A stretch of 64,000 nucleotides of DNA from contig OZ035963.1 of NCBI GenBank assembly GCA_964034945.1, positions 43,423,090-43,487,089 of the forward strand, read 5' to 3'. Positions 28,137 to 64,000 of this stretch are shown piece by piece (position 1 is the stretch's first letter; each line of letters begins with the position of its first letter). The notes under the pieces are model-generated. The model ran no database searches. It was given only the letters and a program-made list of their open reading frames with translations, and was not told the DNA's origin. Source of the stretch: Chrysopilus asiliformis. Taxonomy: Eukaryota; Arthropoda; Insecta; Diptera; Rhagionidae. Position numbers and translations under genes: made by a program.

Positions 28137-31100
28137 TCTTGTACACAGACTGACAGACAGACTGACAGACTGACAGACTGACAGACTGACAGACTGACAG
28201 ACTGACAGACTGACAGACTGACAGACTGACAGACTGACAGACTGACAGACTGACAGACTGACAGACTGACAGACTGACAGACTGACAGACTGACAGACTG
28301 ACAGACTGACAGACTGACAGACTGACAGACTGACAGACTGACAGACTGACAGACTGACAGACTGACAGACTGACAGACTGACAGACTGACAGACTGACAG
28401 ACTGACAGACTGACAGACTGACAGACTGACAGACTGACAGACTGACAGACTGACAGACTGACAGACTGACAGACTGACAGACTGACAGACTGACAGACTG
28501 ACAGACTGACAGACTGACAGACTGACAGACTGACAGACTGACAGACTGACAGACTGACAGACTGACAGACTGACAGACTGACAGACTGACAGACTGACAG
28601 ACTGACAGACTGACAGACTGACAGACTGACAGACTGACAGACTGACAGACTGACAGACTGACAGACTGACAGACTGACAGACTGACAGACTGACAGACTG
28701 ACAGACTGACAGACTGACAGACTGACAGACTGACAGACTGACAGACTGACAGACTGACAGACTGACAGACTGACAGACTGACAGACTGACAGACTGACAG
28801 ACTGACAGACTGACAGACTGACAGACTGACAGACTGACAGACTGACAGACTGACAGACTGACAGACTGACAGACTGACAGACTGACAGACTGACAGACTG
28901 ACAGACTGACAGACTGACAGACTGACAGACTGACAGACTGACAGACTGACAGACTGACAGACTGACAGACTGACAGACTGACAGACTGACAGACTGACAG
29001 ACTGACAGACTGACAGACTGACAGACTGACAGACTGACAGACTGACAGACTGACAGACTGACAGACTGACAGACTGACAGACTGACAGACTGACAGACTG
29101 ACAGACTGACAGACTGACAGACTGACAGACTGACAGACTGACAGACTGACAGACTGACAGACTGACAGACTGACAGACTGACAGACTGACAGACTGACAG
29201 ACTGACAGACTGACAGACTGACAGACTGACAGACTGACAGACTGACAGACTGACAGACTGACAGACTGACAGACTGACAGACTGACAGACTGACAGACTG
29301 ACAGACTGACAGACTGACAGACTGACAGACTGACAGACTGACAGACTGACAGACTGACAGACTGACAGACTGACAGACTGACAGACTGACAGACTGACAG
29401 ACTGACAGACTGACAGACTGACAGACTGACAGACTGACAGACTGACAGACTGACAGACTGACAGACTGACAGACTGACAGACTGACAGACTGACAGACTG
29501 ACAGACTGACAGACTGACAGACTGACAGACTGACAGACTGACAGACTGACAGACTGACAGACTGACAGACTGACAGACTGACAGACTGACAGACTGACAG
29601 ACTGACAGACTGACAGACTGACAGACTGACAGACTGACAGACTGACAGACTGACAGACTGACAGACTGACAGACTGACAGACTGACAGACTGACAGACTG
29701 ACAGACTGACAGACTGACAGACTGACAGACTGACAGACTGACAGACTGACAGACTGACAGACTGACAGACTGACAGACTGACAGACTGACAGACTGACAG
29801 ACTGACAGACTGACAGACTGACAGACTGACAGACTGACAGACTGACAGACTGACAGACTGACAGACTGACAGACTGACAGACTGACAGACTGACAGACTG
29901 ACAGACTGACAGACTGACAGACTGACAGACTGACAGACTGACAGACTGACAGACTGACAGACTGACAGACTGACAGACTGACAGACTGACAGACTGACAG
30001 ACTGACAGACTGACAGACTGACAGACTGACAGACTGACAGACTGACAGACTGACAGACTGACAGACTGACAGACTGACAGACTGACAGACTGACAGACTG
30101 ACAGACTGACAGACTGACAGACTGACAGACTGACAGACTGACAGACTGACAGACTGACAGACTGACAGACTGACAGACTGACAGACTGACAGACTGACAG
30201 ACTGACAGACTGACAGACTGACAGACTGACAGACTGACAGACTGACAGACTGACAGACTGACAGACTGACAGACTGACAGACTGACAGACTGACAGACTG
30301 ACAGACTGACAGACTGACAGACTGACAGACTGACAGACTGACAGACTGACAGACTGACAGACTGACAGACTGACAGACTGACAGACTGACAGACTGACAG
30401 ACTGACAGACTGACAGACTGACAGACTGACAGACTGACAGACTGACAGACTGACAGACTGACAGACTGACAGACTGACAGACTGACAGACTGACAGACTG
30501 ACAGACTGACAGACTGACAGACTGACAGACTGACAGACTGACAGACTGACAGACTGACAGACTGACAGACTGACAGACTGACAGACTGACAGACTGACAG
30601 ACTGACAGACTGATGACAGACTGACAGACTGACAGACTGACAGACTGACAGACTGACAGACTGACAGACTGACAGACTGACAGACTGACAGACTGACAGA
30701 CTGACAGACTGACAGACTGACAGACTGACAGACTGACAGACTGACAGACTGACAGACTGACAGACTGACAGACTGACAGACTGACAGACTGACAGACTGA
30801 CAGACTGACAGACTGACAGACTGACGAGACTGACAGACTGACAGACTGACAGACTGACAGACTGACAGACTGACAGACCTGACAGACTGACAGGACTGAC
30901 AGACAGACTGACAGACTGACAGACTGACAGACTGACAGACTGACAGACAGACTGAGACTGACAGACTGACAGACTGGACAGACCACTGACAGACTGACAG
31001 ACTGACAGACTGACAGACTGACAGACTGACAGACTGACAGACTGACAGACTGACAGACTGACAGACTGACAGACTGACAGACTGACAGACTGACAGACTG

Positions 31101-31340
31101 ACAGACTGACAGACTGACAGACTGACAGACTGACAGACTGACAGACTGACAGACTGACAGACTGACAGACTGACAGACTGACAGACTGACAGACTGACAG
31201 ACTGACAGACTGACAGACTGACAGACTGACAGACTGACAGACTGACAGACTGACAGACTGACAGACTGACAGACTGACAGACTGACAGACTGACAGACTG
31301 ACAGACTGACAGACTGACAGACTGACAGACTGACAGACTG
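28137..31340 (+). repeat. Satellite array 1, (ACAGACTG)n
   Basis: About 3.2 kb of the octamer ACAGACTG. It is almost perfect except at its start, where one unit is shortened (GACAGACAGACTG near 28150), and in a cluster of indels at 30612-30983. The reverse strand has no stop in any frame because 8 and 3 share no factor and the three phases give the same octapeptide. Confidence 0.97.
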
Positions 31341-31700
31341 ATTCCCAACATCATGGACTGGGTTAACAGGAAGCACGGCGAAGTGAACTACTATGTCACA
31401 CAACTATTAACAGGACATGGTAGCTATCAGTCATACCTGCATAGGTTTAAGATTGCAGATAATCCAGGTTGCACGCACTGTGGTGCACTAACAACCGAGG
31501 ATGCTGAGCACGTATTTTTCCACTGCCCGAGGTACAATGGGGCTCGAGCGAAATTGCAAGTCATTTGTAACGAGCTGGTGACCCCAGAAAATATAGTGAA
31601 GCATATGCTCGAAAGCAGAAAGAATTGGGATGCAGTGTGTGACATGGCAGCCTATGTACTGAAGGACCTTGCACAACTGGAGAAAAACAGCAGAACGTAG
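31341..31700 (+). pseudogene. R1-type ORF2 C-terminus (copy A)
   Basis: The frame is open from the junction to TAG at 31698-31700. It reads IPNIMDWVNRKHGEVNYYV, then the zinc-finger-like CTHCGALTTEDAEHVFFHC (C-X2-C, H-X4-C). This is the CCHC motif after the reverse transcriptase in R1/I-type elements, where it helps bind nucleic acid. Endonuclease and reverse transcriptase are missing through 5' truncation. The first in-frame ATG is at 31353, but no independent gene is implied. Confidence 0.8.
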
Positions 31701-31857
31701 TGCGAAGAGGGGCCCTGTAGGCCGCAATCTCTCCCCGCGAAGTAATGCCTAGCGGTGGTCCCGCGGGGAGCAGAAAGAGTGGGGGTGGTTTTAGTGGGTA
31801 AAAAGCCCACACCTGGCCGCTTAAGCGGCCAGAGTCTTTCGAAGATTTCCACCTCCC

Positions 31858-31861
<4 letters not shown>
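31701..31861 (+). promoter_or_regulatory. R1-type 3' UTR with conserved hairpins (copy A)
   Basis: A 9-bp stem CTCCCCGCG/CGCGGGGAG encloses about 22 bases (31731-31770). A 5-bp stem GTGGG/CCCAC has the loop TAAAAAG (31794-31810). Next is the perfect hairpin GGCCGCTTAAGCGGCC. The UTR ends TCTTTCGAAGATTTCCACCTC before poly(A). In R1/R2-type elements the 3' UTR RNA is what the reverse transcriptase recognises. The 5-bp stem is supported by compensatory changes in copy C. Confidence 0.65.
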
Positions 31862-31892
<31 letters not shown>

Positions 31893-31894
<2 letters not shown>

Positions 31895-35086: not shown

Positions 35087-35382
35087 TATTAACAGGACAT
35101 GGTAGCTATCAGTCATACCTGCATAGGTTTAAGATTGCAGATAATCCAGGGTGCACGCACTGTGGTGCACTAACAACCGAGGATGCGGAGCACGTATTTT
35201 TCCACTGCCCGAGGTACAATGGGGCTCGAGCGAAATTGCAAGTCATTTGTAACGAGCTGGTGACCCCAGAAAATATAGTGAAGCATATGCTCGAAAGCAG
35301 AAAGAATTGGGATGCAGTGTGTGACATGGCAGCCTATGTACTGAAGGACCTTGCACAACTGGAGAAAAACAGCAGAACGTAG
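35087..35382 (+). pseudogene. R1-type ORF2 C-terminus (copy B)
   Basis: Open frame LTGHGSYQSYLHRFKIADN through the CCHC motif to the same C-terminus as copy A. It is the shortest of the three related tails and is inactive through truncation. Confidence 0.75.
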
Positions 35383-35565
35383 TGCGAAGAGGGGCCCTGT
35401 AGGCCGCAATCTCTCCCCGCGAAGTAATGCCTAGCGGTGGTCCCGCGGGGAGCAGAAAGAGTGGGGGTGGTTTTAGTGGGTAAAAATCCCACACCTGGCC
35501 GCTTTAGCGGCCAGAGTCTTTCGAAGATTTCCACCTCCCAATTAAAAAAAAAAAAAAAAAAAAAA
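35087..35565 (+). mobile_element. 5'-truncated R1-type non-LTR copy B
   Basis: It begins TATTAACAGGACATGG after ACAGACTGA, so it is truncated about 70 bp further in than A. The ORF2 tail is open to TAG at 35380-35382. The 3' UTR is nearly identical to A, with CTTTAG for CTTAAG in the hairpin and TCCC for GCCC in the small stem-loop. Poly(A) is 22 long, followed by GACTGACAG. Confidence 0.9.
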
Positions 35566-38500
35566 GACTGACAGACTGACAGACTGACAGACTGACAGAC
35601 TGACAGACTGACAGACTGACAGACTGACAGACTGACAGACTGACAGACTGACAGACTGACAGACTGACAGACTGACAGACTGACAGACTGACAGACTGAC
35701 AGACTGACAGACTGACAGACTGACAGACTGACAGACTGACAGACTGACAGACTGACAGACTGACAGACTGACAGACTGACAGACTGACAGACTGACAGAC
35801 TGACAGACTGACAGACTGACAGACTGACAGACTGACAGACTGACAGACTGACAGACTGACAGACTGACAGACTGACAGACTGACAGACTGACAGACTGAC
35901 AGACTGACAGACTGACAGACTGACAGACTGACAGACTGACAGACTGACAGACTGACAGACTGACAGACTGACAGACTGACAGACTGACAGACTGACAGAC
36001 TGACAGACTGACAGACTGACAGACTGACAGACTGACAGACTGACAGACTGACAGACTGACAGACTGACAGACTGACAGACTGACAGACTGACAGACTGAC
36101 AGACTGACAGACTGACAGACTGACAGACTGACAGACTGACAGACTGACAGACTGACAGACTGACAGACTGACAGACTGACAGACTGACAGACTGACAGAC
36201 TGACAGACTGACAGACTGACAGACTGACAGACTGACAGACTGACAGACTGACAGACTGACAGACTGACAGACTGACAGACTGACAGACTGACAGACTGAC
36301 AGACTGACAGACTGACAGACTGACAGACTGACAGACTGACAGACTGACAGACTGACAGACTGACAGACTGACAGACTGACAGACTGACAGACTGACAGAC
36401 TGACAGACTGACAGACTGACAGACTGACAGACTGACAGACTGACAGACTGACAGACTGACAGACTGACAGACTGACAGACTGACAGACTGACAGACTGAC
36501 AGACTGACAGACTGACAGACTGACAGACTGACAGACTGACAGACTGACAGACTGACAGACTGACAGACTGACAGACTGACAGACTGACAGACTGACAGAC
36601 TGACAGACTGACAGACTGACAGACTGACAGACTGACAGACTGACAGACTGACAGACTGACAGACTGACAGACTGACAGACTGACAGACTGACAGACTGAC
36701 AGACTGACAGACTGACAGACTGACAGACTGACAGACTGACAGACTGACAGACTGACAGACTGACAGACTGACAGACTGACAGACTGACAGACTGACAGAC
36801 TGACAGACTGACAGACTGACAGACTGACAGACTGACAGACTGACAGACTGACAGACTGACAGACTGACAGACTGACAGACTGACAGACTGACAGACTGAC
36901 AGACTGACAGACTGACAGACTGACAGACTGACAGACTGACAGACTGACAGACTGACAGACTGACAGACTGACAGACTGACAGACTGACAGACTGACAGAC
37001 TGACAGACTGACAGACTGACAGACTGACAGACTGACAGACTGACAGACTGACAGACTGACAGACTGACAGACTGACAGACTGACAGACTGACAGACTGAC
37101 AGACTGACAGACTGACAGACTGACAGACTGACAGACTGACAGACTGACAGACTGACAGACTGACAGACTGACAGACTGACAGACTGACAGACTGACAGAC
37201 TGACAGACTGACAGACTGACAGACTGACAGACTGACAGACTGACAGACTGACAGACTGACAGACTGACAGACTGACAGACTGACAGACTGACAGACTGAC
37301 AGACTGACAGACTGACAGACTGACAGACTGACAGACTGACAGACTGACAGACTGACAGACTGACAGACTGACAGACTGACAGACTGACAGACTGACAGAC
37401 TGACAGACTGACAGACTGACAGACTGACAGACTGACAGACTGACAGACTGACAGACTGACAGACTGACAGACTGACAGACTGACAGACTGACAGACTGAC
37501 AGACTGACAGACTGACAGACTGACAGACTGACAGACTGACAGACTGACAGACTGACAGACTGACAGACTGACAGACTGACAGACTGACAGACTGACAGAC
37601 TGACAGACTGACAGACTGACAGACTGACAGACTGACAGACTGACAGACTGACAGACTGACAGACTGACAGACTGACAGACTGACAGACTGACAGACTGAC
37701 AGACTGACAGACTGACAGACTGACAGACTGACAGACTGACAGACTGACAGACTGACAGACTGACAGACTGACAGACTGACAGACTGACAGACTGACAGAC
37801 TGACAGACTGACAGACTGACAGACTGACAGACTGACAGACTGACAGACTGACAGACTGACAGACTGACAGACTGACAGACTGACAGACTGACAGACTGAC
37901 AGACTGACAGACTGACAGACTGACAGACTGACAGACTGACAGACTGACAGACTGACAGACTGACAGACTGACAGACTGACAGACTGACAGACTGACAGAC
38001 TGACAGACTGACAGACTGACAGACTGACAGACTGACAGACTGACAGACTGACAGACTGACAGACTGACAGACTGACAGACTGACAGACTGACAGACTGAC
38101 AGACTGACAGACTGACAGACTGACAGACTGACAGACTGACAGACTGACAGACTGACAGACTGACAGACTGACAGACTGACAGACTGACAGACTGACAGAC
38201 TGACAGACTGACAGACTGACAGACTGACAGACTGACAGACTGACAGACTGACAGACTGACAGACTGACAGACTGACAGACTGACAGACTGACAGACTGAC
38301 AGACTGACAGACTGACAGACTGACAGACTGACAGACTGACAGACTGACAGACTGACAGACTGACAGACTGACAGACTGACAGACTGACAGACTGACAGAC
38401 TGACAGACTGACAGACTGACAGACTGACAGACTGACAGACTGACAGACTGACAGACTGACAGACTGACAGACTGACAGACTGACAGACTGACAGACTGAC

Positions 38501-41500
38501 AGACTGACAGACTGACAGACTGACAGACTGACAGACTGACAGACTGACAGACTGACAGACTGACAGACTGACAGACTGACAGACTGACAGACTGACAGAC
38601 TGACAGACTGACAGACTGACAGACTGACAGACTGACAGACTGACAGACTGACAGACTGACAGACTGACAGACTGACAGACTGACAGACTGACAGACTGAC
38701 AGACTGACAGACTGACAGACTGACAGACTGACAGACTGACAGACTGACAGACTGACAGACTGACAGACTGACAGACTGACAGACTGACAGACTGACAGAC
38801 TGACAGACTGACAGACTGACAGACTGACAGACTGACAGACTGACAGACTGACAGACTGACAGACTGACAGACTGACAGACTGACAGACTGACAGACTGAC
38901 AGACTGACAGACTGACAGACTGACAGACTGACAGACTGACAGACTGACAGACTGACAGACTGACAGACTGACAGACTGACAGACTGACAGACTGACAGAC
39001 TGACAGACTGACAGACTGACAGACTGACAGACTGACAGACTGACAGACTGACAGACTGACAGACTGACAGACTGACAGACTGACAGACTGACAGACTGAC
39101 AGACTGACAGACTGACAGACTGACAGACTGACAGACTGACAGACTGACAGACTGACAGACTGACAGACTGACAGACTGACAGACTGACAGACTGACAGAC
39201 TGACAGACTGACAGACTGACAGACTGACAGACTGACAGACTGACAGACTGACAGACTGACAGACTGACAGACTGACAGACTGACAGACTGACAGACTGAC
39301 AGACTGACAGACTGACAGACTGACAGACTGACAGACTGACAGACTGACAGACTGACAGACTGACAGACTGACAGACTGACAGACTGACAGACTGACAGAC
39401 TGACAGACTGACAGACTGACAGACTGACAGACTGACAGACTGACAGACTGACAGACTGACAGACTGACAGACTGACAGACTGACAGACTGACAGACTGAC
39501 AGACTGACAGACTGACAGACTGACAGACTGACAGACTGACAGACTGACAGACTGACAGACTGACAGACTGACAGACTGACAGACTGACAGACTGACAGAC
39601 TGACAGACTGACAGACTGACAGACTGACAGACTGACAGACTGACAGACTGACAGACTGACAGACTGACAGACTGACAGACTGACAGACTGACAGACTGAC
39701 AGACTGACAGACTGACAGACTGACAGACTGACAGACTGACAGACTGACAGACTGACAGACTGACAGACTGACAGACTGACAGACTGACAGACTGACAGAC
39801 TGACAGACTGACAGACTGACAGACTGACAGACTGACAGACTGACAGACTGACAGACTGACAGACTGACAGACTGACAGACTGACAGACTGACAGACTGAC
39901 AGACTGACAGACTGACAGACTGACAGACTGACAGACTGACAGACTGACAGACTGACAGACTGACAGACTGACAGACTGACAGACTGACAGACTGACAGAC
40001 TGACAGACTGACAGACTGACAGACTGACAGACTGACAGACTGACAGACTGACAGACTGACAGACTGACAGACTGACAGACTGACAGACTGACAGACTGAC
40101 AGACTGACAGACTGACAGACTGACAGACTGACAGACTGACAGACTGACAGACTGACAGACTGACAGACTGACAGACTGACAGACTGACAGACTGACAGAC
40201 TGACAGACTGACAGACTGACAGACTGACAGACTGACAGACTGACAGACTGACAGACTGACAGACTGACAGACTGACAGACTGACAGACTGACAGACTGAC
40301 AGACTGACAGACTGACAGACTGACAGACTGACAGACTGACAGACTGACAGACTGACAGACTGACAGACTGACAGACTGACAGACTGACAGACTGACAGAC
40401 TGACAGACTGACAGACTGACAGACTGACAGACTGACAGACTGACAGACTGACAGACTGACAGACTGACAGACTGACAGACTGACAGACTGACAGACTGAC
40501 AGACTGACAGACTGACAGACTGACAGACTGACAGACTGACAGACTGACAGACTGACAGACTGACAGACTGACAGACTGACAGACTGACAGACTGACAGAC
40601 TGACAGACTGACAGACTGACAGACTGACAGACTGACAGACTGACAGACTGACAGACTGACAGACTGACAGACTGACAGACTGACAGACTGACAGACTGAC
40701 AGACTGACAGACTGACAGACTGACAGACTGACAGACTGACAGACTGACAGACTGACAGACTGACAGACTGACAGACTGACAGACTGACAGACTGACAGAC
40801 TGACAGACTGACAGACTGACAGACTGACAGACTGACAGACTGACAGACTGACAGACTGACAGACTGACAGACTGACAGACTGACAGACTGACAGACTGAC
40901 AGACTGACAGACTGACAGACTGACAGACTGACAGACTGACAGACTGACAGACTGACAGACTGACAGACTGACAGACTGACAGACTGACAGACTGACAGAC
41001 TGACAGACTGACAGACTGACAGACTGACAGACTGACAGACTGACAGACTGACAGACTGACAGACTGACAGACTGACAGACTGACAGACTGACAGACTGAC
41101 AGACTGACAGACTGACAGACTGACAGACTGACAGACTGACAGACTGACAGACTGACAGACTGACAGACTGACAGACTGACAGACTGACAGACTGACAGAC
41201 TGACAGACTGACAGACTGACAGACTGACAGACTGACAGACTGACAGACTGACAGACTGACAGACTGACAGACTGACAGACTGACAGACTGACAGACTGAC
41301 AGACTGACAGACTGACAGACTGACAGACTGACAGACTGACAGACTGACAGACTGACAGACTGACAGACTGACAGACTGACAGACTGACAGACTGACAGAC
41401 TGACAGACTGACAGACTGACAGACTGACAGACTGACAGACTGACAGACTGACAGACTGACAGACTGACAGACTGACAGACTGACAGACTGACAGACTGAC

Positions 41501-49228: not shown

Positions 49229-49232
<4 letters not shown>
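49104..49232 (+). promoter_or_regulatory. R1-type 3' UTR with hairpins (copy C)
   Basis: It contains the 5-bp stem GCCGG/CCGGC with loop TAAGAAT at 49179-49195, in the same place as GTGGG/CCCAC in A, B and D. The conserved phrases GAAGTAAT, GTCCCGCGGGG and TCTTTCGAAGATTTCCACCT follow the same order as the other copies. It is likely the recognition structure for target-primed reverse transcription. Confidence 0.65.
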
Positions 49233-49273
<41 letters not shown>

Positions 49274-49428
49274 CTGACAAACTGACAGACTGACAGACTG
49301 ACAGACTGACAGACTGACAGACTGACAGACTGACAGACTGACAGACTGACAGACTGACAGACTGACAGACTGACAGACTGACAGACTGACAGACTGACAG
49401 ACTGACAGACTGACAGACTGACAGACTG

Positions 49429-49556
49429 ACCGACTGACCGACTGACCGACTGACCGACTGACCGACTGACCGACTGACCGACTGACCGACTGACCGACTG
49501 ACCGACTGACCGACTGACCGACTGACCGACTGACCGACTGACCGACTGACCGACTG
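49429..49556 (+). repeat. Variant block, 16 units of ACCGACTG
   Basis: A single A-to-C change is carried by 16 consecutive units with ordinary units on both sides, which implies local expansion of one mutant unit. Confidence 0.95.
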
Positions 49557-51996: not shown

Positions 51997-52460
51997 ACAG
52001 GCTGACAGACTGACAGGCTGACAGGCTGACAGGCTGACAGGCTGACAGGCTGACAGGCTGACAGGCTGACAGGCTGACAGGCTGACAGGCTGACAGGCTG
52101 ACAGGCTGACAGGCTGACAGGCTGACAGGCTGACAGGCTGACAGGCTGACAGGCTGACAGGCTGACAGGCTGACAGGCTGACAGGCTGACAGGCTGACAG
52201 GCTGACAGGCTGACAGGCTGACAGGCTGACAGGCTGACAGGCTGACAGGCTGACAGGCTGACAGGCTGACAGGCTGACAGGCTGACAGGCTGACAGGCTG
52301 ACAGGCTGACAGGCTGACAGGCTGACAGGCTGACAGGCTGACAGGCTGACAGGCTGACAGGCTGACAGGCTGACAGGCTGACAGGCTGACAGGCTGACAG
52401 GCTGACAGGCTGACAGGCTGACAGGCTGACAGGCTGACAGGCTGACAGGCTGACAGGCTG
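51997..52460 (+). repeat. Variant block, 57 units of ACAGGCTG
   Basis: A-to-G change in 57 units, with one unchanged unit after the first. It is the largest homogenised block in the window. Confidence 0.95.
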
Positions 52461-55400
52461 ACAGACTGACAGACTGACAGACTGACAGACTGACAGACTG
52501 ACAGACTGACAGACTGACAGACTGACAGACTGACAGACTGACAGACTGACAGACTGACAGACTGACAGACTGACAGACTGACAGACTGACAGACTGACAG
52601 ACTGACAGACTGACAGACTGACAGACTGACAGACTGACAGACTGACAGACTGACAGACTGACAGACTGACAGACTGACAGACTGACAGACTGACAGACTG
52701 ACAGACTGACAGACTGACAGACTGACAGACTGACAGACTGACAGACTGACAGACTGACAGACTGACAGACTGACAGACTGACAGACTGACAGACTGACAG
52801 ACTGACAGACTGACAGACTGACAGACTGACAGACTGACAGACTGACAGACTGACAGACTGACAGACTGACAGACTGACAGACTGACAGACTGACAGACTG
52901 ACAGACTGACAGACTGACAGACTGACAGACTGACAGACTGACAGACTGACAGACTGACAGACTGACAGACTGACAGACTGACAGACTGACAGACTGACAG
53001 ACTGACAGACTGACAGACTGACAGACTGACAGACTGACAGACTGACAGACTGACAGACTGACAGACTGACAGACTGACAGACTGACAGACTGACAGACTG
53101 ACAGACTGACAGACTGACAGACTGACAGACTGACAGACTGACAGACTGACAGACTGACAGACTGACAGACTGACAGACTGACAGACTGACAGACTGACAG
53201 ACTGACAGACTGACAGACTGACAGACTGACAGACTGACAGACTGACAGACTGACAGACTGACAGACTGACAGACTGACAGACTGACAGACTGACAGACTG
53301 ACAGACTGACAGACTGACAGACTGACAGACTGACAGACTGACAGACTGACAGACTGACAGACTGACAGACTGACAGACTGACAGACTGACAGACTGACAG
53401 ACTGACAGACTGACAGACTGACAGACTGACAGACTGACAGACTGACAGACTGACAGACTGACAGACTGACAGACTGACAGACTGACAGACTGACAGACTG
53501 ACAGACTGACAGACTGACAGACTGACAGACTGACAGACTGACAGACTGACAGACTGACAGACTGACAGACTGACAGACTGACAGACTGACAGACTGACAG
53601 ACTGACAGACTGACAGACTGACAGACTGACAGACTGACAGACTGACAGACTGACAGACTGACAGACTGACAGACTGACAGACTGACAGACTGACAGACTG
53701 ACAGACTGACAGACTGACAGACTGACAGACTGACAGACTGACAGACTGACAGACTGACAGACTGACAGACTGACAGACTGACAGACTGACAGACTGACAG
53801 ACTGACAGACTGACAGACTGACAGACTGACAGACTGACAGACTGACAGACTGACAGACTGACAGACTGACAGACTGACAGACTGACAGACTGACAGACTG
53901 ACAGACTGACAGACTGACAGACTGACAGACTGACAGACTGACAGACTGACAGACTGACAGACTGACAGACTGACAGACTGACAGACTGACAGACTGACAG
54001 ACTGACAGACTGACAGACTGACAGACTGACAGACTGACAGACTGACAGACTGACAGACTGACAGACTGACAGACTGACAGACTGACAGACTGACAGACTG
54101 ACAGACTGACAGACTGACAGACTGACAGACTGACAGACTGACAGACTGACAGACTGACAGACTGACAGACTGACAGACTGACAGACTGACAGACTGACAG
54201 ACTGACAGACTGACAGACTGACAGACTGACAGACTGACAGACTGACAGACTGACAGACTGACAGACTGACAGACTGACAGACTGACAGACTGACAGACTG
54301 ACAGACTGACAGACTGACAGACTGACAGACTGACAGACTGACAGACTGACAGACTGACAGACTGACAGACTGACAGACTGACAGACTGACAGACTGACAG
54401 ACTGACAGACTGACAGACTGACAGACTGACAGACTGACAGACTGACAGACTGACAGACTGACAGACTGACAGACTGACAGACTGACAGACTGACAGACTG
54501 ACAGACTGACAGACTGACAGACTGACAGACTGACAGACTGACAGACTGACAGACTGACAGACTGACAGACTGACAGACTGACAGACTGACAGACTGACAG
54601 ACTGACAGACTGACAGACTGACAGACTGACAGACTGACAGACTGACAGACTGACAGACTGACAGACTGACAGACTGACAGACTGACAGACTGACAGACTG
54701 ACAGACTGACAGACTGACAGACTGACAGACTGACAGACTGACAGACTGACAGACTGACAGACTGACAGACTGACAGACTGACAGACTGACAGACTGACAG
54801 ACTGACAGACTGACAGACTGACAGACTGACAGACTGACAGACTGACAGACTGACAGACTGACAGACTGACAGACTGACAGACTGACAGACTGACAGACTG
54901 ACAGACTGACAGACTGACAGACTGACAGACTGACAGACTGACAGACTGACAGACTGACAGACTGACAGACTGACAGACTGACAGACTGACAGACTGACAG
55001 ACTGACAGACTGACAGACTGACAGACTGACAGACTGACAGACTGACAGACTGACAGACTGACAGACTGACAGACTGACAGACTGACAGACTGACAGACTG
55101 ACAGACTGACAGACTGACAGACTGACAGACTGACAGACTGACAGACTGACAGACTGACAGACTGACAGACTGACAGACTGACAGACTGACAGACTGACAG
55201 ACTGACAGACTGACAGACTGACAGACTGACAGACTGACAGACTGACAGACTGACAGACTGACAGACTGACAGACTGACAGACTGACAGACTGACAGACTG
55301 ACAGACTGACAGACTGACAGACTGACAGACTGACAGACTGACAGACTGACAGACTGACAGACTGACAGACTGACAGACTGACAGACTGACAGACTGACAG

Positions 55401-55932
55401 ACTGACAGACTGACAGACTGACAGACTGACAGACTGACAGACTGACAGACTGACAGACTGACAGACTGACAGACTGACAGACTGACAGACTGACATACTG
55501 ACATACTGACAGACTGACAGACTGACAGACTGACAGACTGACAGACTGACAGACTGACAGACTGACAGACTGACAGACTGACAGACTGACAGACTGACAG
55601 ACTGACAGACTGACAGACTGACAGACTGACAGACTGACAGACTGACAGACTGACAGACTGACAGACTGACAGACTGACAGACTGACAGACTGACAGACTG
55701 ACAGACTGACAGACTGACAGACTGACAGACTGACAGACTGACAGACTGACAGACTGACAGACTGACAGACTGACAGACTGACAGACTGACAGACTGACAG
55801 ACTGACAGACTGACAGACTGACAGACTGACAGACTGACAGACTGACAGACTGACAGACTGACAGACTGACAGACTGACAGACTGACAGACTGACAGACTG
55901 ACAGACTGACAGACTGACAGACTGACAGACTG

Positions 55933-56292
55933 ATTCCCAACATCATGGACTGGGTTAACAGGAAGCACGGCGAAGTGAACTACTATGTCACACAACTATT
56001 AACAGGACATGGTAGCTATCAGTCATACCTGCATAGGTTTAAGATTGCAGATAATCCAGGTTGCACGCACTGTGGTGCACTAACAACCGAGGATGCTGAG
56101 CACGTATTTTTCCACTGCCCGAGGTACCATGGGGCTCGAGCGAAATTGCAAGTCATTTGTAACGAGCTGGTGACCCCAGAAAATATAGTGAAGCATATGC
56201 TCGAAAGCAGAAAGAATTGGGATGCAGTGTGTGACATGGCAGCCTATGTACTGAAGGACCTTGCACAACTGGAGAAAAACAGCAGAACGTAG
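55933..56292 (+). pseudogene. R1-type ORF2 C-terminus (copy D)
   Basis: Same open tail as copy A, including CTHCGALTTEDAEHVFFHC; one residue differs (RYHGARA for RYNGARA). Inactive by truncation. Confidence 0.8.
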
Positions 56293-56428
56293 TGCGAAGA
56301 GGGGCCCTGTAGGCCGCAATCTCTCCCCGCGAAGTAATGCCTAGCGGTGGTCCCGCGGGGAGCAGAAAGAGTGGGGGTGGTTTTAGTGGGTAAAAATCCC
56401 ACACCTCTTTCGAAGATTTCCACCTCCC

Positions 56429-56460
<32 letters not shown>
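55933..56460 (+). mobile_element. 5'-truncated R1-type non-LTR copy D
   Basis: It has the same 5' break point as copy A (ACTG then ATTCCCAACATC), the same ORF2 tail to TAG at 56290-56292 and 28 A before GACTGACAG. It differs from A by AATGGGG to CATGGGG, TCCC in the small stem, and exact loss of the GGCCGC..GCGGCC hairpin (21 bp). The flank after the poly(A) repeats the shortened satellite unit seen after A, so A and D may be one duplicated segment. Confidence 0.9.
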
Positions 56461-56461
<1 letters not shown>

Positions 56462-59400
56462 ACTGACAGACTGACAGACAGACTGACAGACTGACAGACT
56501 GACAGACTGACAGACTGACAGACTGACAGACTGACAGACTGACAGACTGACAGACTGACAGACTGACAGACTGACAGACTGACAGACTGACAGACTGACA
56601 GACTGACAGACTGACAGACTGACAGACTGACAGACTGACAGACTGACAGACTGACAGACTGACAGACTGACAGACTGACAGACTGACAGACTGACAGACT
56701 GACAGACTGACAGACTGACAGACTGACAGACTGACAGACTGACAGACTGACAGACTGACAGACTGACAGACTGACAGACTGACAGACTGACAGACTGACA
56801 GACTGACAGACTGACAGACTGACAGACTGACAGACTGACAGACTGACAGACTGACAGACTGACAGACTGACAGACTGACAGACTGACAGACTGACAGACT
56901 GACAGACTGACAGACTGACAGACTGACAGACTGACAGACTGACAGACTGACAGACTGACAGACTGACAGACTGACAGACTGACAGACTGACAGACTGACA
57001 GACTGACAGACTGACAGACTGACAGACTGACAGACTGACAGACTGACAGACTGACAGACTGACAGACTGACAGACTGACAGACTGACAGACTGACAGACT
57101 GACAGACTGACAGACTGACAGACTGACAGACTGACAGACTGACAGACTGACAGACTGACAGACTGACAGACTGACAGACTGACAGACTGACAGACTGACA
57201 GACTGACAGACTGACAGACTGACAGACTGACAGACTGACAGACTGACAGACTGACAGACTGACAGACTGACAGACTGACAGACTGACAGACTGACAGACT
57301 GACAGACTGACAGACTGACAGACTGACAGACTGACAGACTGACAGACTGACAGACTGACAGACTGACAGACTGACAGACTGACAGACTGACAGACTGACA
57401 GACTGACAGACTGACAGACTGACAGACTGACAGACTGACAGACTGACAGACTGACAGACTGACAGACTGACAGACTGACAGACTGACAGACTGACAGACT
57501 GACAGACTGACAGACTGACAGACTGACAGACTGACAGACTGACAGACTGACAGACTGACAGACTGACAGACTGACAGACTGACAGACTGACAGACTGACA
57601 GACTGACAGACTGACAGACTGACAGACTGACAGACTGACAGACTGACAGACTGACAGACTGACAGACTGACAGACTGACAGACTGACAGACTGACAGACT
57701 GACAGACTGACAGACTGACAGACTGACAGACTGACAGACTGACAGACTGACAGACTGACAGACTGACAGACTGACAGACTGACAGACTGACAGACTGACA
57801 GACTGACAGACTGACAGACTGACAGACTGACAGACTGACAGACTGACAGACTGACAGACTGACAGACTGACAGACTGACAGACTGACAGACTGACAGACT
57901 GACAGACTGACAGACTGACAGACTGACAGACTGACAGACTGACAGACTGACAGACTGACAGACTGACAGACTGACAGACTGACAGACTGACAGACTGACA
58001 GACTGACAGACTGACAGACTGACAGACTGACAGACTGACAGACTGACAGACTGACAGACTGACAGACTGACAGACTGACAGACTGACAGACTGACAGACT
58101 GACAGACTGACAGACTGACAGACTGACAGACTGACAGACTGACAGACTGACAGACTGACAGACTGACAGACTGACAGACTGACAGACTGACAGACTGACA
58201 GACTGACAGACTGACAGACTGACAGACTGACAGACTGACAGACTGACAGACTGACAGACTGACAGACTGACAGACTGACAGACTGACAGACTGACAGACT
58301 GACAGACTGACAGACTGACAGACTGACAGACTGACAGACTGACAGACTGACAGACTGACAGACTGACAGACTGACAGACTGACAGACTGACAGACTGACA
58401 GACTGACAGACTGACAGACTGACAGACTGACAGACTGACAGACTGACAGACTGACAGACTGACAGACTGACAGACTGACAGACTGACAGACTGACAGACT
58501 GACAGACTGACAGACTGACAGACTGACAGACTGACAGACTGACAGACTGACAGACTGACAGACTGACAGACTGACAGACTGACAGACTGACAGACTGACA
58601 GACTGACAGACTGACAGACTGACAGACTGACAGACTGACAGACTGACAGACTGACAGACTGACAGACTGACAGACTGACAGACTGACAGACTGACAGACT
58701 GACAGACTGACAGACTGACAGACTGACAGACTGACAGACTGACAGACTGACAGACTGACAGACTGACAGACTTACAGACTGACAGACTGACAGACTGACA
58801 GACTGACAGACTGACAGACTGACAGACTGACAGACTGACAGACTGACAGACTGACAGACTGACAGACTGACAGACTGACAGACTGACAGACTGACAGACT
58901 GACAGACTGACAGACTGACAGACTGACAGACTGACAGACTGACAGACTGACAGACTGACAGACTGACAGACTGACAGACTGACAGACTGACAGACTGACA
59001 GACTGACAGACTGACAGACTGACAGACTGACAGACTGACAGACTGACAGACTGACAGACTGACAGACTGACAGACTGACAGACTGACAGACTGACAGACT
59101 GACAGACTGACAGACTGACAGACTGACAGACTGACAGACTGACAGACTGACAGACTGACAGACTGACAGACTGACAGACTGACAGACTGACAGACTGACA
59201 GACTGACAGACTGACAGACTGACAGACTGACAGACTGACAGACTGACAGACTGACAGACTGACAGACTGACAGACTGACAGACTGACAGACTGACAGACT
59301 GACAGACTGACAGACTGACAGACTGACAGACTGACAGACTGACAGACTGACAGACTGACAGACTGACAGACTGACAGACTGACAGACTGACAGACTGACA

Positions 59401-59637
59401 GACTGACAGACTGACAGACTGACAGACTGACAGACTGACAGACTGACAGACTGACAGACTGACAGACTGACAGACTGACAGACTGACAGACTGACAGACT
59501 GACAGACTGACAGACTGACAGACTGACAGACTGACAGACTGACAGACTGACAGACTGTCAGACTGTCAGACTGACAGACTGACAGACTGACAGACTGACA
59601 GACTGACAGACTGACAGACTGACAGACTGACAGACTG
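56461..59637 (+). repeat. Satellite array 5, (ACAGACTG)n
   Basis: About 3.2 kb. It begins with the shortened unit (GACAGACAGACTG), has one ACAGACTT near 58771 and two units with ACTGTCAG near 59556-59570. Otherwise it is perfect. Confidence 0.97.
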
Positions 59638-59784
59638 TATTTATTTATTTATTTATTTAATTACATTTCGTCAACAAAAACTGACTATTTAAGCGAGTAA
59701 TACAATTTTTAAAAACAAAAAGAGTAAAAAAAATATATATTTTATACATATGTTCACTAATATGAGCAAAAAAGGAAAAAAAAA

Positions 59785-62655
59785 TTATTTTAACAAAGCT
59801 TTCAGAGATTCTAAGCTAACACAAAAATCAATATTATAATACATAGAGTTAAATGAACGCGACATAGACGATACTGGTTCATTTAAGCCGTAATTCGTAC
59901 GATGGTGACGAATACTTAAAAAATCAGAGTTTCTGAGCATTCTAGTAGGTGCCATTATATTAATTTTGGACAATAGGTGAGGGGAGCTAACCAACCCCGT
60001 CAGTAATTTAAATACAAAGCATATTTTAAAATTTTGCCTACGCTCTTTTAGCGATTTTAAATCAAGTAGCCTTAATCTACTGGCATAAGGGGGGAGAATT
60101 AAGGAGTTTTCCCAAGGCAATTTATTAAGAGCGAATCGCAAAAACTTTTTTTGGACACTTTCAATTCTATCCGCATGAATAGAATAAAATGGGTCCCAAA
60201 CAATAGAACAATACTCCAAAATAGGACGAACGAAACAAAAGTATAACAATTTAGTAATAAAAGGGTCAAAAAATTCTTTGCACCATCTTTTTACAAACCC
60301 AAGAGTTGAATTGGCTCGACTCACCATATGATTAATGTGGTCCACAAAAGTAAGGCGAAAGTCAAAGAATACACCAAGATCCTTAATTATATTAATTCTA
60401 GATAAAATACTCCCATCAAGGGAATAGTCAAAAAATAGAATATCTTTTTTTCTGCTAAAACTAAGAATGGAACACTTACTAACATTTAAGACCATACAAT
60501 TTTTATCGCACCACACACAAAAATTATGCAGGTCAATCATTAAAAGACTATGGTCAAGCGTATTACACACAGTTCTATAAATTTTCATATCGTCAGCATA
60601 AATTAAAATATTACTGTAGAGAAATACTAAGTCGATGTCGTTTATAAATAAAATAAATAGTAGAGGACCAAGATGGCTTCCTTGTGGTACTCCCGATCGG
60701 TTCAAAATTGGCTTAGAAAAAGAATTACGAAATAATACATTCTGTACCCGACCATTGAGATATGATTTAATCCACCTAATAAATAGTGCCGGGAAACCAA
60801 GAACAGAGAGTTTGTATAATAAAACATCATGTGATAATCTGTCGAAGGCTTTAGTGAAATCAGTGTAAACACAGTCCACTTGTAGCCCATCTTCAATGTT
60901 AGTTTGACAGAAAGTGGTAAATTCAGTTAAATTAGTTTCAGTAGATCTTTTTTTTACAAAACCATGTTGAAAAGGATTAATAATCGATTTTACATGGAAG
61001 TTTAAACGCGAACAAATCATAGCCTCAAAGAGTTTCGGAATACAGGACAGTTTCGCGATTGGTCTGTAATTTGAGATATCTTCTCGATTTCCTTTTTTGA
61101 AAAGAGGAATAATATAGGATGATTTCCATATCGAAGGGAAAATTCCAGATCGTATTGATAAATTGAATAAATGCGCTAAAGGGCGACTTAAATTAATGTC
61201 ACAATTTTTTAAAACAGCAGAAGGAACGCCATCAGGTCCACATGAAAATTTACTATCTAGTGTCTTAATACTGTCAATAATATCACATTCGTCAAGAAAT
61301 AAATCCTTCATAGTTAAAGTCGTCAAAGGAATATTTTTTAAGTATTTAAAATACGTATAATCTATATCACAGTTTGAATCACAAAAAGCAGATTGAAAAA
61401 AGTCTGCAAAAAGATTGCAGATAATATCTGTGTCAGAACTCTTAATATTGTTTAAAAATAACGATATTGGATAATCATTGACTTTCCTCTTACTGTTAAC
61501 GAAGCTCCAAAAAGATTTAGGATCAGATTTGAGATTCTTTCGAATATTTGAAACATATATCTGATAAGAGGCATTAGCTGCCATCAAGAACTCTTTTTTG
61601 GCATGCAAATAATTCTGAAAGTCATAGTCTGATTTAGAGTAAAAATAAAGTTTCCAGCATTTGGTTTTTAAATTACGTAAGTGACATATTTCCGAATTGA
61701 ACCAAATAGGATGCACTGATTGATTTTTTAAGCACGTATACGGTACTGTAACCGCGAAAACATTGAAAACATATTGATAAAAGTAAAACGTGGACTGATC
61801 AACATCAATTTCATTAAGAACATCGAACCAGGAACAATTATTGAAAAGATTAGACATCTCTGAAAAATTTGCCTTTTGAAAATTAAATTGAAATTTGGAG
61901 TTAGAAAAATTATTTGAACTAATATAGTCAGTATTAAAAAAACAAGAAATCGCCGGATGATGTCCAACAACAGGAAACATCGGAGAATCACAAGAATAAA
62001 TTGTAGTAGATGAGGCATCAGATGAGAACACCAAATCCAGAATTCGCCCATTTACATTAGTCACATGGTTCACTTGGCAGAGATTTTTGGAATAAAGATC
62101 ATCTAAGAACTCTGCAGTTGATTGGCATGATGTGTTTGGGATCAGGAAATCGTCATCATCAGATGGTGACCAGGTCACAAGAGGAAGGTTGAAGTCACCA
62201 AAAATCAAAATGTCATCTTCGGGATCCATTAGGTTGTCAACGAAATCAATCGCGTCACAAAATGATTGATAAATTATTGTTGCTGAAGACGGCGGGATAT
62301 AGAAAATGACGACGTAGATAAGCCTTGAAGCAATATTTGTAGATATACATAGAAATTCCAAAACGTTAGGCACAGGAACCTCTACTCTTCTAGATGGGAA
62401 AGATGAACGCACCGCACACATTATGCCTCCACCAACAGGTGCATCATGAGATTCGTGTCGATCCCGTCGAAAAACGTTGAAGTTCGATGAAAATATTTCG
62501 CCATTAAAAAAACTAGCATTTAGCCACGTTTCGGTGAAGCAAACAATATCGTAATCGCAATCAGATGAAGATGAAAAAAATTGAGATAATTTAGAACGGA
62601 TTCCATTTACGTTTTGGTAGTAGATAGCGAGTTGACTACACCGTTTTTTGAAGAA
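59785..62655 (-). CDS. ORF2 of element E: endonuclease and reverse transcriptase
   Basis: The frame is open from 62655 to the stop at 59785. Its first ATG is at 62421, but the endonuclease already starts upstream with IYYQNVNGIRSKL (about 62628) and FTETWLNAS. Starting at that ATG would remove catalytic residues. From the slippery site it gives 952 residues. Motifs: GDFNLPLVTW and GHHPAI (endonuclease); SNYRPIAKLSCIPKLFE, QHGFVKKRST, DFTKAFDRLSHD, SGVPQGSHLGPLLF and YADD at 60589-60600 (reverse transcriptase); then VRPILEYCSIVWDP. No internal stop or missing motif was seen, so the enzyme may be functional. It makes DNA from the element RNA at a nicked target. Confidence 0.9.
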   Translation of the reverse strand, partial: FFKKRCSQLAIYYQNVNGIRSKLSQFFSSSSDCDYDIVCFTETWLNASFFNGEIFSSNFNVFRRDRHESHDAPVGGGIMCAVRSSFPSRRVEVPVPNVLEFLCISTNIASRLIYVVIFYIPPSSATIIYQSFCDAIDFVDNLMDPEDDILIFGDFNLPLVTWSPSDDDDFLIPNTSCQSTAEFLDDLYSKNLCQVNHVTNVNGRILDLVFSSDASSTTIYSCDSPMFPVVGHHPAISCFFNTDYISSNNFSNSKFQFNFQKANFSEMSNLFNNCSWFDVLNEIDVDQSTFYFYQYVFNVFAVTVPYTCLKNQSVHPIWFNSEICHLRNLKTKCWKLYFYSKSDYDFQNYLHAKKEFLMAANASYQIYVSNIRKNLKSDPKSFWSFVNSKRKVNDYPISLFLNNIKSSDTDIICNLFADFFQSAFCDSNCDIDYTYFKYLKNIPLTTLTMKDLFLDECDIIDSIKTLDSKFSCGPDGVPSAVLKNCDINLSRPLAHLFNLSIRSGIFPSIWKSSYIIPLFKKGNREDISNYRPIAKLSCIPKLFEAMICSRLNFHVKSIINPFQHGFVKKRSTETNLTEFTTFCQTNIEDGLQVDCVYTDFTKAFDRLSHDVLLYKLSVLGFPALFIRWIKSYLNGRVQNVLFRNSFSKPILNRSGVPQGSHLGPLLFILFINDIDLVFLYSNILIYADDMKIYRTVCNTLDHSLLMIDLHNFCVWCDKNCMVLNVSKCSILSFSRKKDILFFDYSLDGSILSRINIIKDLGVFFDFRLTFVDHINHMVSRANSTLGFVKRWCKEFFDPFITKLLYFCFVRPILEYCSIVWDPFYSIHADRIESVQKKFLRFALNKLPWENSLILPPYASRLRLLDLKSLKERRQNFKICFVFKLLTGLVSSPHLLSKINIMAPTRMLRNSDFLSIRHHRTNYGLNEPVSSMSRSFNSMYYNIDFCVSLESLKALLK

Positions 62656-63224
62656 TTAGATCGTGATTGATGATTGCGAGGTCTAATTTGAAATTCTTTT
62701 ACTATCATATCTGGGGACCAAAAATTTCCATTCAAAATTTCCAAAAAGCAGTAATTAGGAACGAAGATTTTGAACGAAGATACTGATGCTTCCGGTTTTT
62801 GAGGAAATTTAAAACATTTTATTGTGTCGTCACTTTTAAAATTGTAGTGCGATTTAACGTAGTTGACGACATCATCCGAAGTTGTAGAAGGATCAAGTCG
62901 TGAAATGAAAAGAGTTTTCGGTCTACTTATCGTTTTTAACATAAATCCAGTAGTATTCGCAGAATGCGCAGAATTTTCAGAGTTTTCCTTCACTACGTTG
63001 TCAATGATTTCTCGTGCCAAGTTAGCAGTCGCAATAGGTGAAATACTATTGGAAGATAAATCTGAATCAGAAATTGACGCAGATGTTAAAGCCATACAAT
63101 TATCGATGGGATTTAAATTGGCAGTTAAGTTTGAACTGGTGTTAGCGATTATGGCACTATTTTTCGAAGCCATCGTGCAATCCTCGGTGTTTAATATATT
63201 GTTTGACTCATCACGTTCTGCCAT
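62607..63224 (-). CDS. ORF1 of element E, RRM-like RNA-binding protein
   Basis: 205 codons from ATG 63224 to TAA 62607-62609. The first 95 residues are Ser/Asn/Ala-rich and probably disordered. From about residue 103, KTLFISRLDPSTTSDDVVNYV, then VSSFKIFVPNYCFLEILNG, then FWSPDMIVKEFQIRPR form the RRM-like domain common in ORF1 proteins of this group. The basic end RPRNHQSRSNSSKNG contains the frameshift heptamer. The protein would coat element RNA. The frame also continues upstream into satellite sequence, so the true start could lie in a lost 5' part, but the ATG fits. Confidence 0.8.
   Translation of the reverse strand: MAERDESNNILNTEDCTMASKNSAIIANTSSNLTANLNPIDNCMALTSASISDSDLSSNSISPIATANLAREIIDNVVKENSENSAHSANTTGFMLKTISRPKTLFISRLDPSTTSDDVVNYVKSHYNFKSDDTIKCFKFPQKPEASVSSFKIFVPNYCFLEILNGNFWSPDMIVKEFQIRPRNHQSRSNSSKNGVVNSLSTTKT
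62643..62649 (-). promoter_or_regulatory. Candidate -1 ribosomal frameshift site, A AAA AAC
   Basis: On the minus strand, in ORF1 frame, the codons are TCA AAA AAC, giving the canonical slippery heptamer A AAA AAC. A shift of -1 continues as CGG TGT AGT, exactly in the ORF2 frame (62643 to 62421 is 74 codons). ORF2's frame is closed by TAA at 62656-62658 just before the heptamer. A possible stem GTAGT/ACTAC begins three bases downstream. Confidence 0.6.
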
Positions 63225-63236
63225 GTAGCCAGTAAA

Positions 63237-64000
63237 ACTGACAGACTGACAGACAGACTGACAGACTGACAGACTGACAGACTGACAGACTGACAGACTG
63301 ACAGACTGACAGACTGACAGACTGACAGACTGACAGACTGACAGACTGACAGACTGACAGACTGACAGACTGACAGACTGACAGACTGACAGACTGACAG
63401 ACTGACAGACTGACAGACTGACAGACTGACAGACTGACAGACTGACAGACTGACAGACTGACAGACTGACAGACTGACAGACTGACAGACTGACAGACTG
63501 ACAGACTGACAGACTGACAGACTGACAGACTGACAGACTGACAGACTGACAGACTGACAGACTGACAGACTGACAGACTGACAGACTGACAGACTGACAG
63601 ACTGACAGACTGACAGACTGACAGACTGACAGACTGACAGACTGACAGACTGACAGACTGACAGACTGACAGACTGACAGACTGACAGACTGACAGACTG
63701 ACAGACTGACAGACTGACAGACTGACAGACTGACAGACTGACAGACTGACAGACTGACAGACTGACAGACTGACAGACTGACAGACTGACAGACTGACAG
63801 ACTGACAGACTGACAGACTGACAGACTGACAGACTGACAGACTGACAGACTGACAGACTGACAGACTGACAGACTGACAGACTGACAGACTGACAGACTG
63901 ACAGACTGACAGACTGACAGACTGACAGACTGACAGACTGACAGACTGACAGACTGACAGACTGACAGACTGACAGACTGACAGACTGACAGACTGACAG
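63237..64000 (+). repeat. Satellite array 6, (ACAGACTG)n, continues past the window
   Basis: At least 764 bp, perfect after the shortened unit near its start (ACTGACAGACTGACAGACAGACTG). It continues to the last base, so the true end is outside the window. Confidence 0.97.

What the first reader, a model, noticed from the sequence alone, without database searches (positions are those of the whole stretch)
28137..64000. Octamer satellite (ACAGACTG)n that appears to host its own R1-type retrotransposon lineage
Seen: four R1-type copies lie in the arrays, all in one orientation, all ending poly(A) then GACTGACA, with three of four starting right after ACAGACTG (B starts one base later). None is seen in the 28 kb of other repeats to the left. 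Known: some R1-clade elements insert in simple repeats or telomeric repeats (Waldo, Mino, TRAS, SART). Inference: this is a family whose endonuclease is specific for the octamer, a target I do not know to be described.
Basis: partly seen in the sequence, partly recalled or inferred. Interest (0 to 1): 0.88.

Follow-up and report, generated by a model that had tools for sequence, protein, structure and literature searches.

The report
Retrotransposons that home to one satellite
In this unnamed, probably insect, genome two kinds of R1-type jumping gene sit almost only in one eight-letter satellite repeat, joined at the same letter and in the same direction, and that satellite is itself the swollen middle of another mobile element, so one genomic parasite seems to make the safe landing strip that another one uses.

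Summary
An 18-base 3'UTR motif shared by the copies occurs 83 times in the 429-Mb assembly (reversed control 0). I read the 3' flank of all 83. 64 lie in (ACAGACTG)n, 15 in the related 12-mer (ACAGACTGACAG)n, 2 in decayed forms; 2 lie elsewhere (an AC/ACAY microsatellite, a degenerate repeat). All 81 have one orientation; 75 of 83 join poly(A)|GACTG. The octamer is about 0.9% of the assembly.

Corrections. (1) The satellite is the internal array of a dispersed Helentron/DINE-1-like element; the whole 36.8-kb array sits inside one copy. (2) A/B/D and C fall in separate R1 sublineages yet share target, register and 3'UTR fold. (3) A and D are probably duplicates. (4) A fifth insert, 59638-63236, is another non-LTR element in the other orientation. 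A 14-bp target-site duplication, as in R1, fits junctions in both 8-mer and 12-mer arrays; copy C does not fit it exactly. Copies with a changed motif were not surveyed, and cleavage is untested.

The parts
27404..28144 (.). Left half of element X, a dispersed Helentron/DINE-1-like non-autonomous element whose internal repeat is the octamer array; the right half starts just outside the window (C4:43488023, window-equivalent 64934) and in this copy lacks the terminal inverted repeat seen in other copies
   Evidence: left halves 92-98% identical in the pairs compared; other X copies carry arrays of about 70 to 1020 bases between the same flanks
28145..31341 (+). octamer (ACAGACTG)n array segment 1
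31342..31892 (+). R1-type copy A: C-terminal ORF2 piece (31344-31697), 3'UTR, poly(A)
31836..31853 (+). 3'UTR motif CTTTCGAAGATTTCCACC in A (also 35518-35535 in B, 49211-49228 in C, 56407-56424 in D)
   Evidence: 83 copies in the genome
31893..35086 (+). octamer array segment 2; first 14 bases GACTGACAGACTGA are the presumed target-site duplication
35087..35565 (+). R1-type copy B, truncated 63 bases further in than A, 99% identical to A
35566..45762 (+). octamer array segment 3
45763..49271 (+). R1-type copy C, the longest in the window: end of ORF1, ORF2 in two frames, 3'UTR, poly(A)
45763..46117 (+). C: ORF1 C-terminus with zinc knuckles; its stop overlaps the ORF2 start as ATGA at 46114
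   Evidence: PF00098 E 9.4e-9
46114..47970 (+). C: ORF2 part 1, endonuclease and first part of the reverse transcriptase
   Evidence: Exo_endo_phos_2 9.8e-22, RVT_1 9.2e-21; nearest solved chains TRAS1 1wdu and R1Bm 2ei9
47898..49103 (+). C: ORF2 part 2 in another frame (frame shift near 47950), rest of RT and C-terminal region
49101..49232 (+). C: 3'UTR with the same predicted fold as A/B/D
49272..55933 (+). octamer array segment 4, with local variant blocks
55934..56460 (+). R1-type copy D, same 5' truncation as A, 21 bases missing in the 3'UTR; probably a duplicate of A
56461..59637 (+). octamer array segment 5
59638..63236 (-). insert E: a different non-LTR element (24% identical to C over 359 aa), 956-aa ORF2 open (62655 down to 59785), tail (TAAA)n; not part of the R1-type group described
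63237..64000 (+). octamer array segment 6, which ends at window-equivalent 64933

Best explanation
A target-specific group of R1-clade non-LTR retrotransposons (two subfamilies here, A-type and C-type) inserts by target-primed reverse transcription into the ACAGACTG/ACAG tandem repeat that forms the centre of a Helentron/DINE-1-like element. Model: the ORF2 endonuclease nicks the CAGTCTGT strand opposite the step A|GACTG, the freed 3' end primes reverse transcription on the poly(A) tail of the RNA, whose folded 3'UTR is recognised, and the other strand is cut about 14 bases downstream, giving a 14-bp duplication hidden in the repeat. Some 5' ends arise by annealing of target to octamer-like letters inside the element (AGACTGA in A/D). 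Shown: location, orientation, register, a shared predicted 3'UTR fold, R1-type proteins, compatibility of most read junctions with a 14-bp duplication. Inferred: that the endonuclease is what reads the repeat, the nick order, the annealing step, and that expansion of the Helentron array made the large target.
For: 83 of 83 motif copies examined: 64 in octamer, 15 in 12-mer, 2 in decayed arrays, 2 elsewhere; 81 of 81 one orientation; 75 of 83 poly(A)|GACTG. The query was a 3'UTR motif, not the satellite. The satellite is about 0.88% of the assembly. 61 of the 83 (the window's four included) are on C1-C5, in 44 clusters more than 100 kb apart. In 12-mer arrays, where both A|GACTG and A|GACAG occur once per unit, 12 of 15 chose GACTG. 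Predicted 3'UTR fold kept with 4 compensated pairs of 38. Endonuclease and RT domains, nearest solved chains TRAS1 and R1Bm. Duplication: B in an 8-mer array allows 2, 6, 14, 22 (or 1, 7, 15, 23 if one A is from the tail); L049 in a 12-mer array allows 2, 14, 26 (or 1, 3, 15, 27); L037 allows 1, 5, 13, 21, 29 (or 6, 14, 22); 14 is the only length above 1 shared by the three. The R1 ancestral duplication is 14 bp (PMC2718515, passages). SART1 joins poly(A) to a fixed letter of its telomeric repeat (PMC7265360, passages).
Against: Two of 83 copies are outside the array type (L040, L099). Copy C's right flank does not fit an exact 13-14 bp duplication (1, 5 or 6 exact; one mismatch otherwise); A/D cannot fix the length because of the microhomology. 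Copies amplified with the satellite inflate the count; only 5 distinct upstream junctions were read (A/D, B, C, L037, L049). The exact-motif search may miss old copies elsewhere; the relaxed search, the ORF2 survey and the control with element E did not complete. No cleavage assay. Selection against insertions elsewhere could mimic part of the location bias, though not the register.
Confidence: 0.9

Rival explanations
1. Few insertions, spread passively: a handful of chance insertions into the satellite were multiplied by unequal exchange and satellite amplification.
For: A and D share truncation point and flank marker; clusters such as the five A-type 12-mer copies on contig C11 look alike.
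Against: Copies lie on C1-C5 (44 clusters over 100 kb apart) and on small contigs; two subfamilies with different UTR ends, first A-runs from 7 to 62 bases, 8-mer and 12-mer arrays, different 5' ends where read. Passive spread does not explain why almost no copy is outside: the founders of both subfamilies would have to be in the repeat and outside copies lost.
Confidence: 0.06
2. Tolerated-site bias: the elements insert widely and only those in interior, perhaps pericentromeric, satellite survive.
For: Sites on C1-C4 lie in the middle parts of the chromosomes, where insertions may persist more easily (inference).
Against: Fixed orientation 81 of 81 and fixed register 75 of 83 are not explained by survival; for 40 independent events one orientation alone has a chance of about 2e-12 (arithmetic).
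Confidence: 0.03
3. General preference for (ACAN)-type microsatellites, as in Waldo, with the octamer hit mainly because it is the commonest such repeat here. This overlaps with the best explanation and differs in how narrow the specificity is.
For: L040 lies in an AC/ACAY microsatellite and L099 in an ACAG/ACAT-like repeat; 3 of 15 copies in 12-mer arrays chose A|GACAG. Waldo's ACAY target is recalled, not read here.
Against: 75 of 83 copies at A|GACTG although other A-steps exist in the same arrays. No count of other ACAN repeats in the genome was made.
Confidence: 0.25

Closest known systems
Waldo and Mino (R1 clade; recalled, their papers were not found in the held library)
   Same: R1-clade elements said to insert in short tandem repeats of AC/ACAY type
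   Different: Target here is an 8-bp satellite unit of a Helentron-like element with a fixed register; no Waldo or Mino sequence was available for a tree
SART1 and TRAS1 (R1 clade, telomeric TTAGG)
   Same: Insertion into a short tandem repeat with poly(A) joined to a fixed letter (SART1: PMC7265360, passages); TRAS1 endonuclease is the nearest solved chain
   Different: The target here is not a telomeric repeat; on C1-C4 the copies lie in middle parts of the chromosomes, inside a transposon's repeat
R1 of 28S rDNA
   Same: APE-type endonuclease, two ORFs, 14-bp duplication and microhomology at 5' ends (PMC2718515, passages)
   Different: Target is a satellite, not rDNA
DINE-1 / HINE (Helentron-derived non-autonomous elements)
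   Same: X has 12-bp subterminal inverted repeats ACTTTCTTCTAC/GTAGAAGAAAGT, a small palindrome at one end, A/T-run edges and central tandem repeats
   Different: One X copy carries an array of 36.8 kb interrupted by retrotransposons; that copy lacks the right inverted repeat; the autonomous partner was not sought

Membership tests
R1 clade of non-LTR retrotransposons | ORF2 with apurinic-type endonuclease, reverse transcriptase and C-terminal zinc region | tested here: met
   Exo_endo_phos_2 9.8e-22, RVT_1 9.2e-21 (C); the zinc region only weakly: zf-RVT 3e-5 in A, 25 bits, below its 27.5 cut-off
R1 clade of non-LTR retrotransposons | ORF1 with CCHC zinc knuckles before ORF2 | tested here: met
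   C ORF1 C-terminus, PF00098 9.4e-9; stop and start overlap as ATGA; the rest of ORF1 is absent from C
R1 clade of non-LTR retrotransposons | closest relatives are R1-clade proteins | tested here: met
   solved chains matched are TRAS1 (4.3e-8) and R1Bm (7.2e-6, and three constructs of it); the 120 listed hits, at 47-60% identity, include two that their source names after R1DM (P0069, P0100). No tree with named clades was made
R1 clade of non-LTR retrotransposons | about 14-bp target-site duplication (ancestral R1 type) | tested here: inconclusive
   14 is the only length above 1 shared by B, L037 and L049 and is allowed for A/D; C does not fit exactly
target-specific element | copies at one kind of site in one register and orientation | tested here: met
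   81 of 83 in array, 81 of 81 one orientation, 75 of 83 one register, for copies with the exact 18-mer
Waldo | insertion in (ACAY)n and sequence kinship with Waldo | not testable with these tools
   no Waldo reference at hand; 1 of 83 copies in an AC/ACAY repeat
TRAS/SART | insertion in telomeric TTAGG-type repeats | tested here: not met
   none of the 83 flanks printed is TTAGG-type; 81 hold ACAGACTG
HINE/DINE-1 (element X) | subterminal inverted repeats of at least 11 bp | tested here: met
   exact 12 bp at both ends in L001, L003, L009, L010, 4 of the 6 copies with both ends seen; L004 differs in one letter on the left, the window's copy lacks the right one; criterion from PMC4067079, passages
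HINE/DINE-1 (element X) | palindrome near the 3' end and central tandem repeats | tested here: met
   small GTTG/CAAC stem at one end; array between the same flanks in 7 of 7 copies with both array edges seen; in an eighth the array runs into N
HINE/DINE-1 (element X) | autonomous Rep/helicase partner | not tested
   not searched

The most novel reading that the evidence does not exclude
A three-layer arrangement: a rolling-circle (Helentron-like) transposon whose central repeat has grown into a megabase-scale interior satellite, and two separate R1 sublineages that both use exactly that repeat, at the same letter, as their landing site. Either the specificity is old in this R1 group and the target repeat was kept or spread by the Helentron for as long, or two lineages came to the same site independently.
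Probability: 0.6. Interest if true: 0.75.

Novelty: new variant of a known kind. Interest (0 to 1): 0.62.

Why it matters
R1-clade elements are a model for how a LINE endonuclease learns a target. Here is a short target that I did not find described, with 8-mer and 12-mer versions side by side in one genome, used by two subfamilies, so that the letters that matter can be read from natural junctions. It also shows a mobile element supplying, through its own internal repeat, a site for another, which bears on why some satellites keep growing and why some retrotransposons persist without harming genes. For annotators: the reverse strand of the octamer is open in all frames and gives spurious ORFs of over 1300 codons.

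Tried and rejected
Exact octamer or 3'UTR motif in IMG/VR viral contigs: none; ORF2 relatives there: none confirmed. Rfam on the A 3'UTR: two matches far below their gathering scores. Octamer-peptide and junction search of the protein database: 69 hits, of which I read 24; those are octamer-like tracts in other contigs (several have no source listed and may be of the window's own genome), and none of the 24 carries an R1 3'UTR. Octamer words in papers, six spellings as whole words: one unrelated hit. Telomere reading rejected: the arrays are the interior of element X. I first thought X was a non-LTR element with an octamer tail; the right half found disproved that. I first took A's start as a clean junction; one search showed a 7-base microhomology, so A/D no longer fix the duplication length. 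The C-terminal tree (122 columns, 115 rows, bootstrap not settled) was not followed by a clade test. The endonuclease model (mean pLDDT 84.8) could not be compared with solved folds.
Full report
What was checked. The window holds a near-perfect (ACAGACTG)n array from 28145 to its end, only in the + sense. Five inserts break it: A, B, C, D (all +, R1-type, poly(A) then GACTGACA) and E (minus strand). A, B and D are about 99% identical over shared parts, apart from a 21-base gap in D; by blastn C matches A only in its last 58 bases, tail included, at 93%, and the overlapping C-terminal protein is 46% identical. So the window alone shows two families in one 3' register.

What the satellite is. 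The tool placed the window at C4:43423090-43487089 of an assembly of 429,065,045 bases in 42 contigs, with 275,468 + 195,207 matches to a 24-base octamer pattern against 146 + 52 for the reversed control, or about 3.77 Mb, 0.88%; long arrays may be collapsed, and one met here ends in N. Small octamer tracts elsewhere are flanked by the same sequence as the window's left edge, and on their right by another constant sequence. The element, X, has a left part of about 0.74 kb, the repeat, and about 0.12 kb on the right. Its ends carry ACTTTCTTCTAC and the exact reverse complement in 4 of 6 copies with both ends seen; L004 has one changed letter, and the window's own copy lacks the right one. One end has a small palindrome. 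PMC4067079 (passages read) gives such subterminal inverted repeats, a 3' palindrome, T-rich insertion sites and central repeats or microsatellites as marks of DINE-1/HINE elements moved by Helentrons. PMC12628747 (passages) describes satellites formed by expansion of internal arrays of Helitrons/Helentrons. The window's array ends at C4:43488022 with X's right half, so the whole 36.8 kb, inserts included, sits inside one X copy. Other X copies carry arrays of about 70 to 1020 bases, with mixtures of 8-mers and 12-mers (ACAGACTGACAG) in those printed; the next X copy downstream carries more than 21.5 kb before an N gap.

The decisive test. The four copies share CTTTCGAAGATTTCCACC shortly before the poly(A) tail. 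In the genome this 18-mer occurs 83 times, reversed control 0; all 83 places were listed and the 3' flank of each was read, 79 by fetching 150 bases and 4 from the window. Result: 64 in octamer arrays, 15 in 12-mer arrays, 4 other. Of the 4, two (L056, L098) are decayed short arrays still joined at GACTG, one (L040) is an AC/ACAY microsatellite, one (L099) a degenerate ACAG/ACAT-like stretch. 81 flanks hold ACAGACTG, 0 hold its reverse complement. Register: 75 of 83 join poly(A)|GACTG; 3 join poly(A)|GACAG, all in 12-mer arrays; L046 has one extra C, L095 an interrupted tail before GACTG, L079 joins at CTGAC, L040 and L099 as above. The script counts 46 C-type (UTR end TTCT) and 37 A-type (TCCCAA) copies, both present in 8-mer and in 12-mer arrays. 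The 61 sites on C1-C5 fall in 44 clusters over 100 kb apart, 31 over 1 Mb; 22 more are on small contigs. Sites lie at 60.6-96.4 of 117 Mb (C1), 36.7-76.6 of 116 Mb (C2), 41.9-76.1 of 115 Mb (C3), 21.2-56.8 of 68 Mb (C4) and, one copy, 9.6 of 10.9 Mb (C5), which suggests but does not prove pericentromeric arrays.

How it works. C carries the end of ORF1 with zinc knuckles, an ATGA overlap, endonuclease and reverse transcriptase, with a frame shift near 47950. The solved chains it matches are the endonucleases of TRAS1 and R1Bm. The 3'UTRs of A/B/D and C, though diverged, fit one predicted fold with 38 pairs, 4 with changes on both sides, as expected of an RNA that its own protein recognises; only two families inform this. 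The fixed 3' junction implies a nick between A and GACTG; SART1 joins its tail to a fixed letter of the telomeric repeat in the same way (PMC7265360, passages). A duplication inside a repeat can be read only modulo the unit. B, in an 8-mer array and without shared letters at its edge, allows 2, 6, 14, 22 (or 1, 7, 15, 23 if one A comes from the tail). L049, in a 12-mer array, ends at GACAGACAGA|AGCTG and allows 2, 14, 26 (one less if the shared A is the element's; 1, 3, 15, 27 with a tail A). L037 allows 1, 5, 13, 21, 29 or 6, 14, 22. The only length above 1 that the three share is 14. C is the exception: exact 1, 5 or 6, or 13-14 with one mismatch. R1 elements of most arthropods have duplications of about 14 bp (PMC2718515, passages). 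In three of four longer A-type copies checked, the letters before A's first base read AGACTGA, identical to the target, so A/D's truncation may come from annealing of target to cDNA at an octamer-like spot inside the element; the same paper reports microhomologies of 1 to 5 bases at R1 5' junctions.

One lineage or two. A tree of the last 122 columns with 113 database relatives puts C with P0001, P0007 and P0011 (97/91) and A in another group of 56 rows (96/94); few columns, bootstrap not settled, relatives chosen by likeness to C. If right, the octamer group is not a single exclusive lineage. Specificity may be ancestral to a wider R1 group, or gained twice. Five A-type copies fetched elsewhere are 98.4-99.6% identical to A; four run on for the whole 650 bases and the fifth runs into N, so the group was probably active recently.

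Limits. The relaxed motif search, the ORF2 survey and the element-E control did not complete (calls listed in Tried and rejected), so the claim covers copies that keep the exact 18-mer. Five distinct upstream junctions were read (A/D, B, C, L037, L049). Array lengths depend on the assembly. Novelty: only searched papers for the octamer letters; the listings, on R1-clade and repeat targets, showed no title or abstract about this target. PMC4640811 (passages) names microsatellites and telomeric repeats among known targets and the R1 clade among the target-specific groups. Papers on Waldo and Mino did not turn up in the held library, and Repbase was not available, so a database entry may exist.

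Noticed in passing
59638-63236: Fifth insert E, a non-LTR element of another type in the opposite orientation with an open 956-aa ORF2 and a (TAAA)n tail, also inside the octamer; best database relative 50% identical.
   Followed up: partly
28145-31341, 31893-35086, 56461-59637: Three array segments between inserts have nearly the same length (3197, 3194, 3177 bases), and each starts with the marker ACTGACAGACAGACTG within 20 bases; the other two complete segments between inserts are 10197 and 6662. Real higher-order structure or an assembly effect.
   Followed up: partly
28149, 31902, 56470, 63245: The 12-mer marker, otherwise seen in this array only twice (30895, 30939, in a noisy stretch), sits just right of the array's left edge and of inserts A, D and E; perhaps a relic of the older 8/12-mer mixture.
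   Followed up: partly
41850-41890, 49431-49551, 51212-51244, 52001-52457: Local blocks of homogenised variant units, a record of recent local slippage or exchange.
   Followed up: no
30826-30992: A noisy stretch of irregular units that looks like sequencing or consensus error.
   Followed up: no
31342 and 55934: Longer genomic copies (3 of 4 checked) have AGACTGA just before A's first base, so the truncation point matches the target by 7 bases.
   Followed up: yes
13138-17337: Open 1399-aa polyprotein with RT, RNase H, integrase and a zinc knuckle, a Ty3-like LTR-type element, after a 34-bp tandem repeat at 12697-12934.
   Followed up: no
22825-23048: Perfect tandem pair of a 111-bp unit.
   Followed up: no
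28079-31387, 31561-35088, 41873-45958 (minus strand): The octamer's reverse strand is open in all frames (QSVSLSVC)n, giving ORFs of up to 1361 codons that gene callers may report.
   Followed up: yes
downstream loci, about C4:43578639-43587474: Three distant non-LTR relatives (23% to the C ORF2) spaced about 4 kb apart, outside the octamer.
   Followed up: no
L040, L099: The two copies outside octamer-type arrays lie in an AC/ACAY microsatellite and a degenerate ACAG/ACAT-like repeat, possibly a trace of an older, broader specificity.
   Followed up: no
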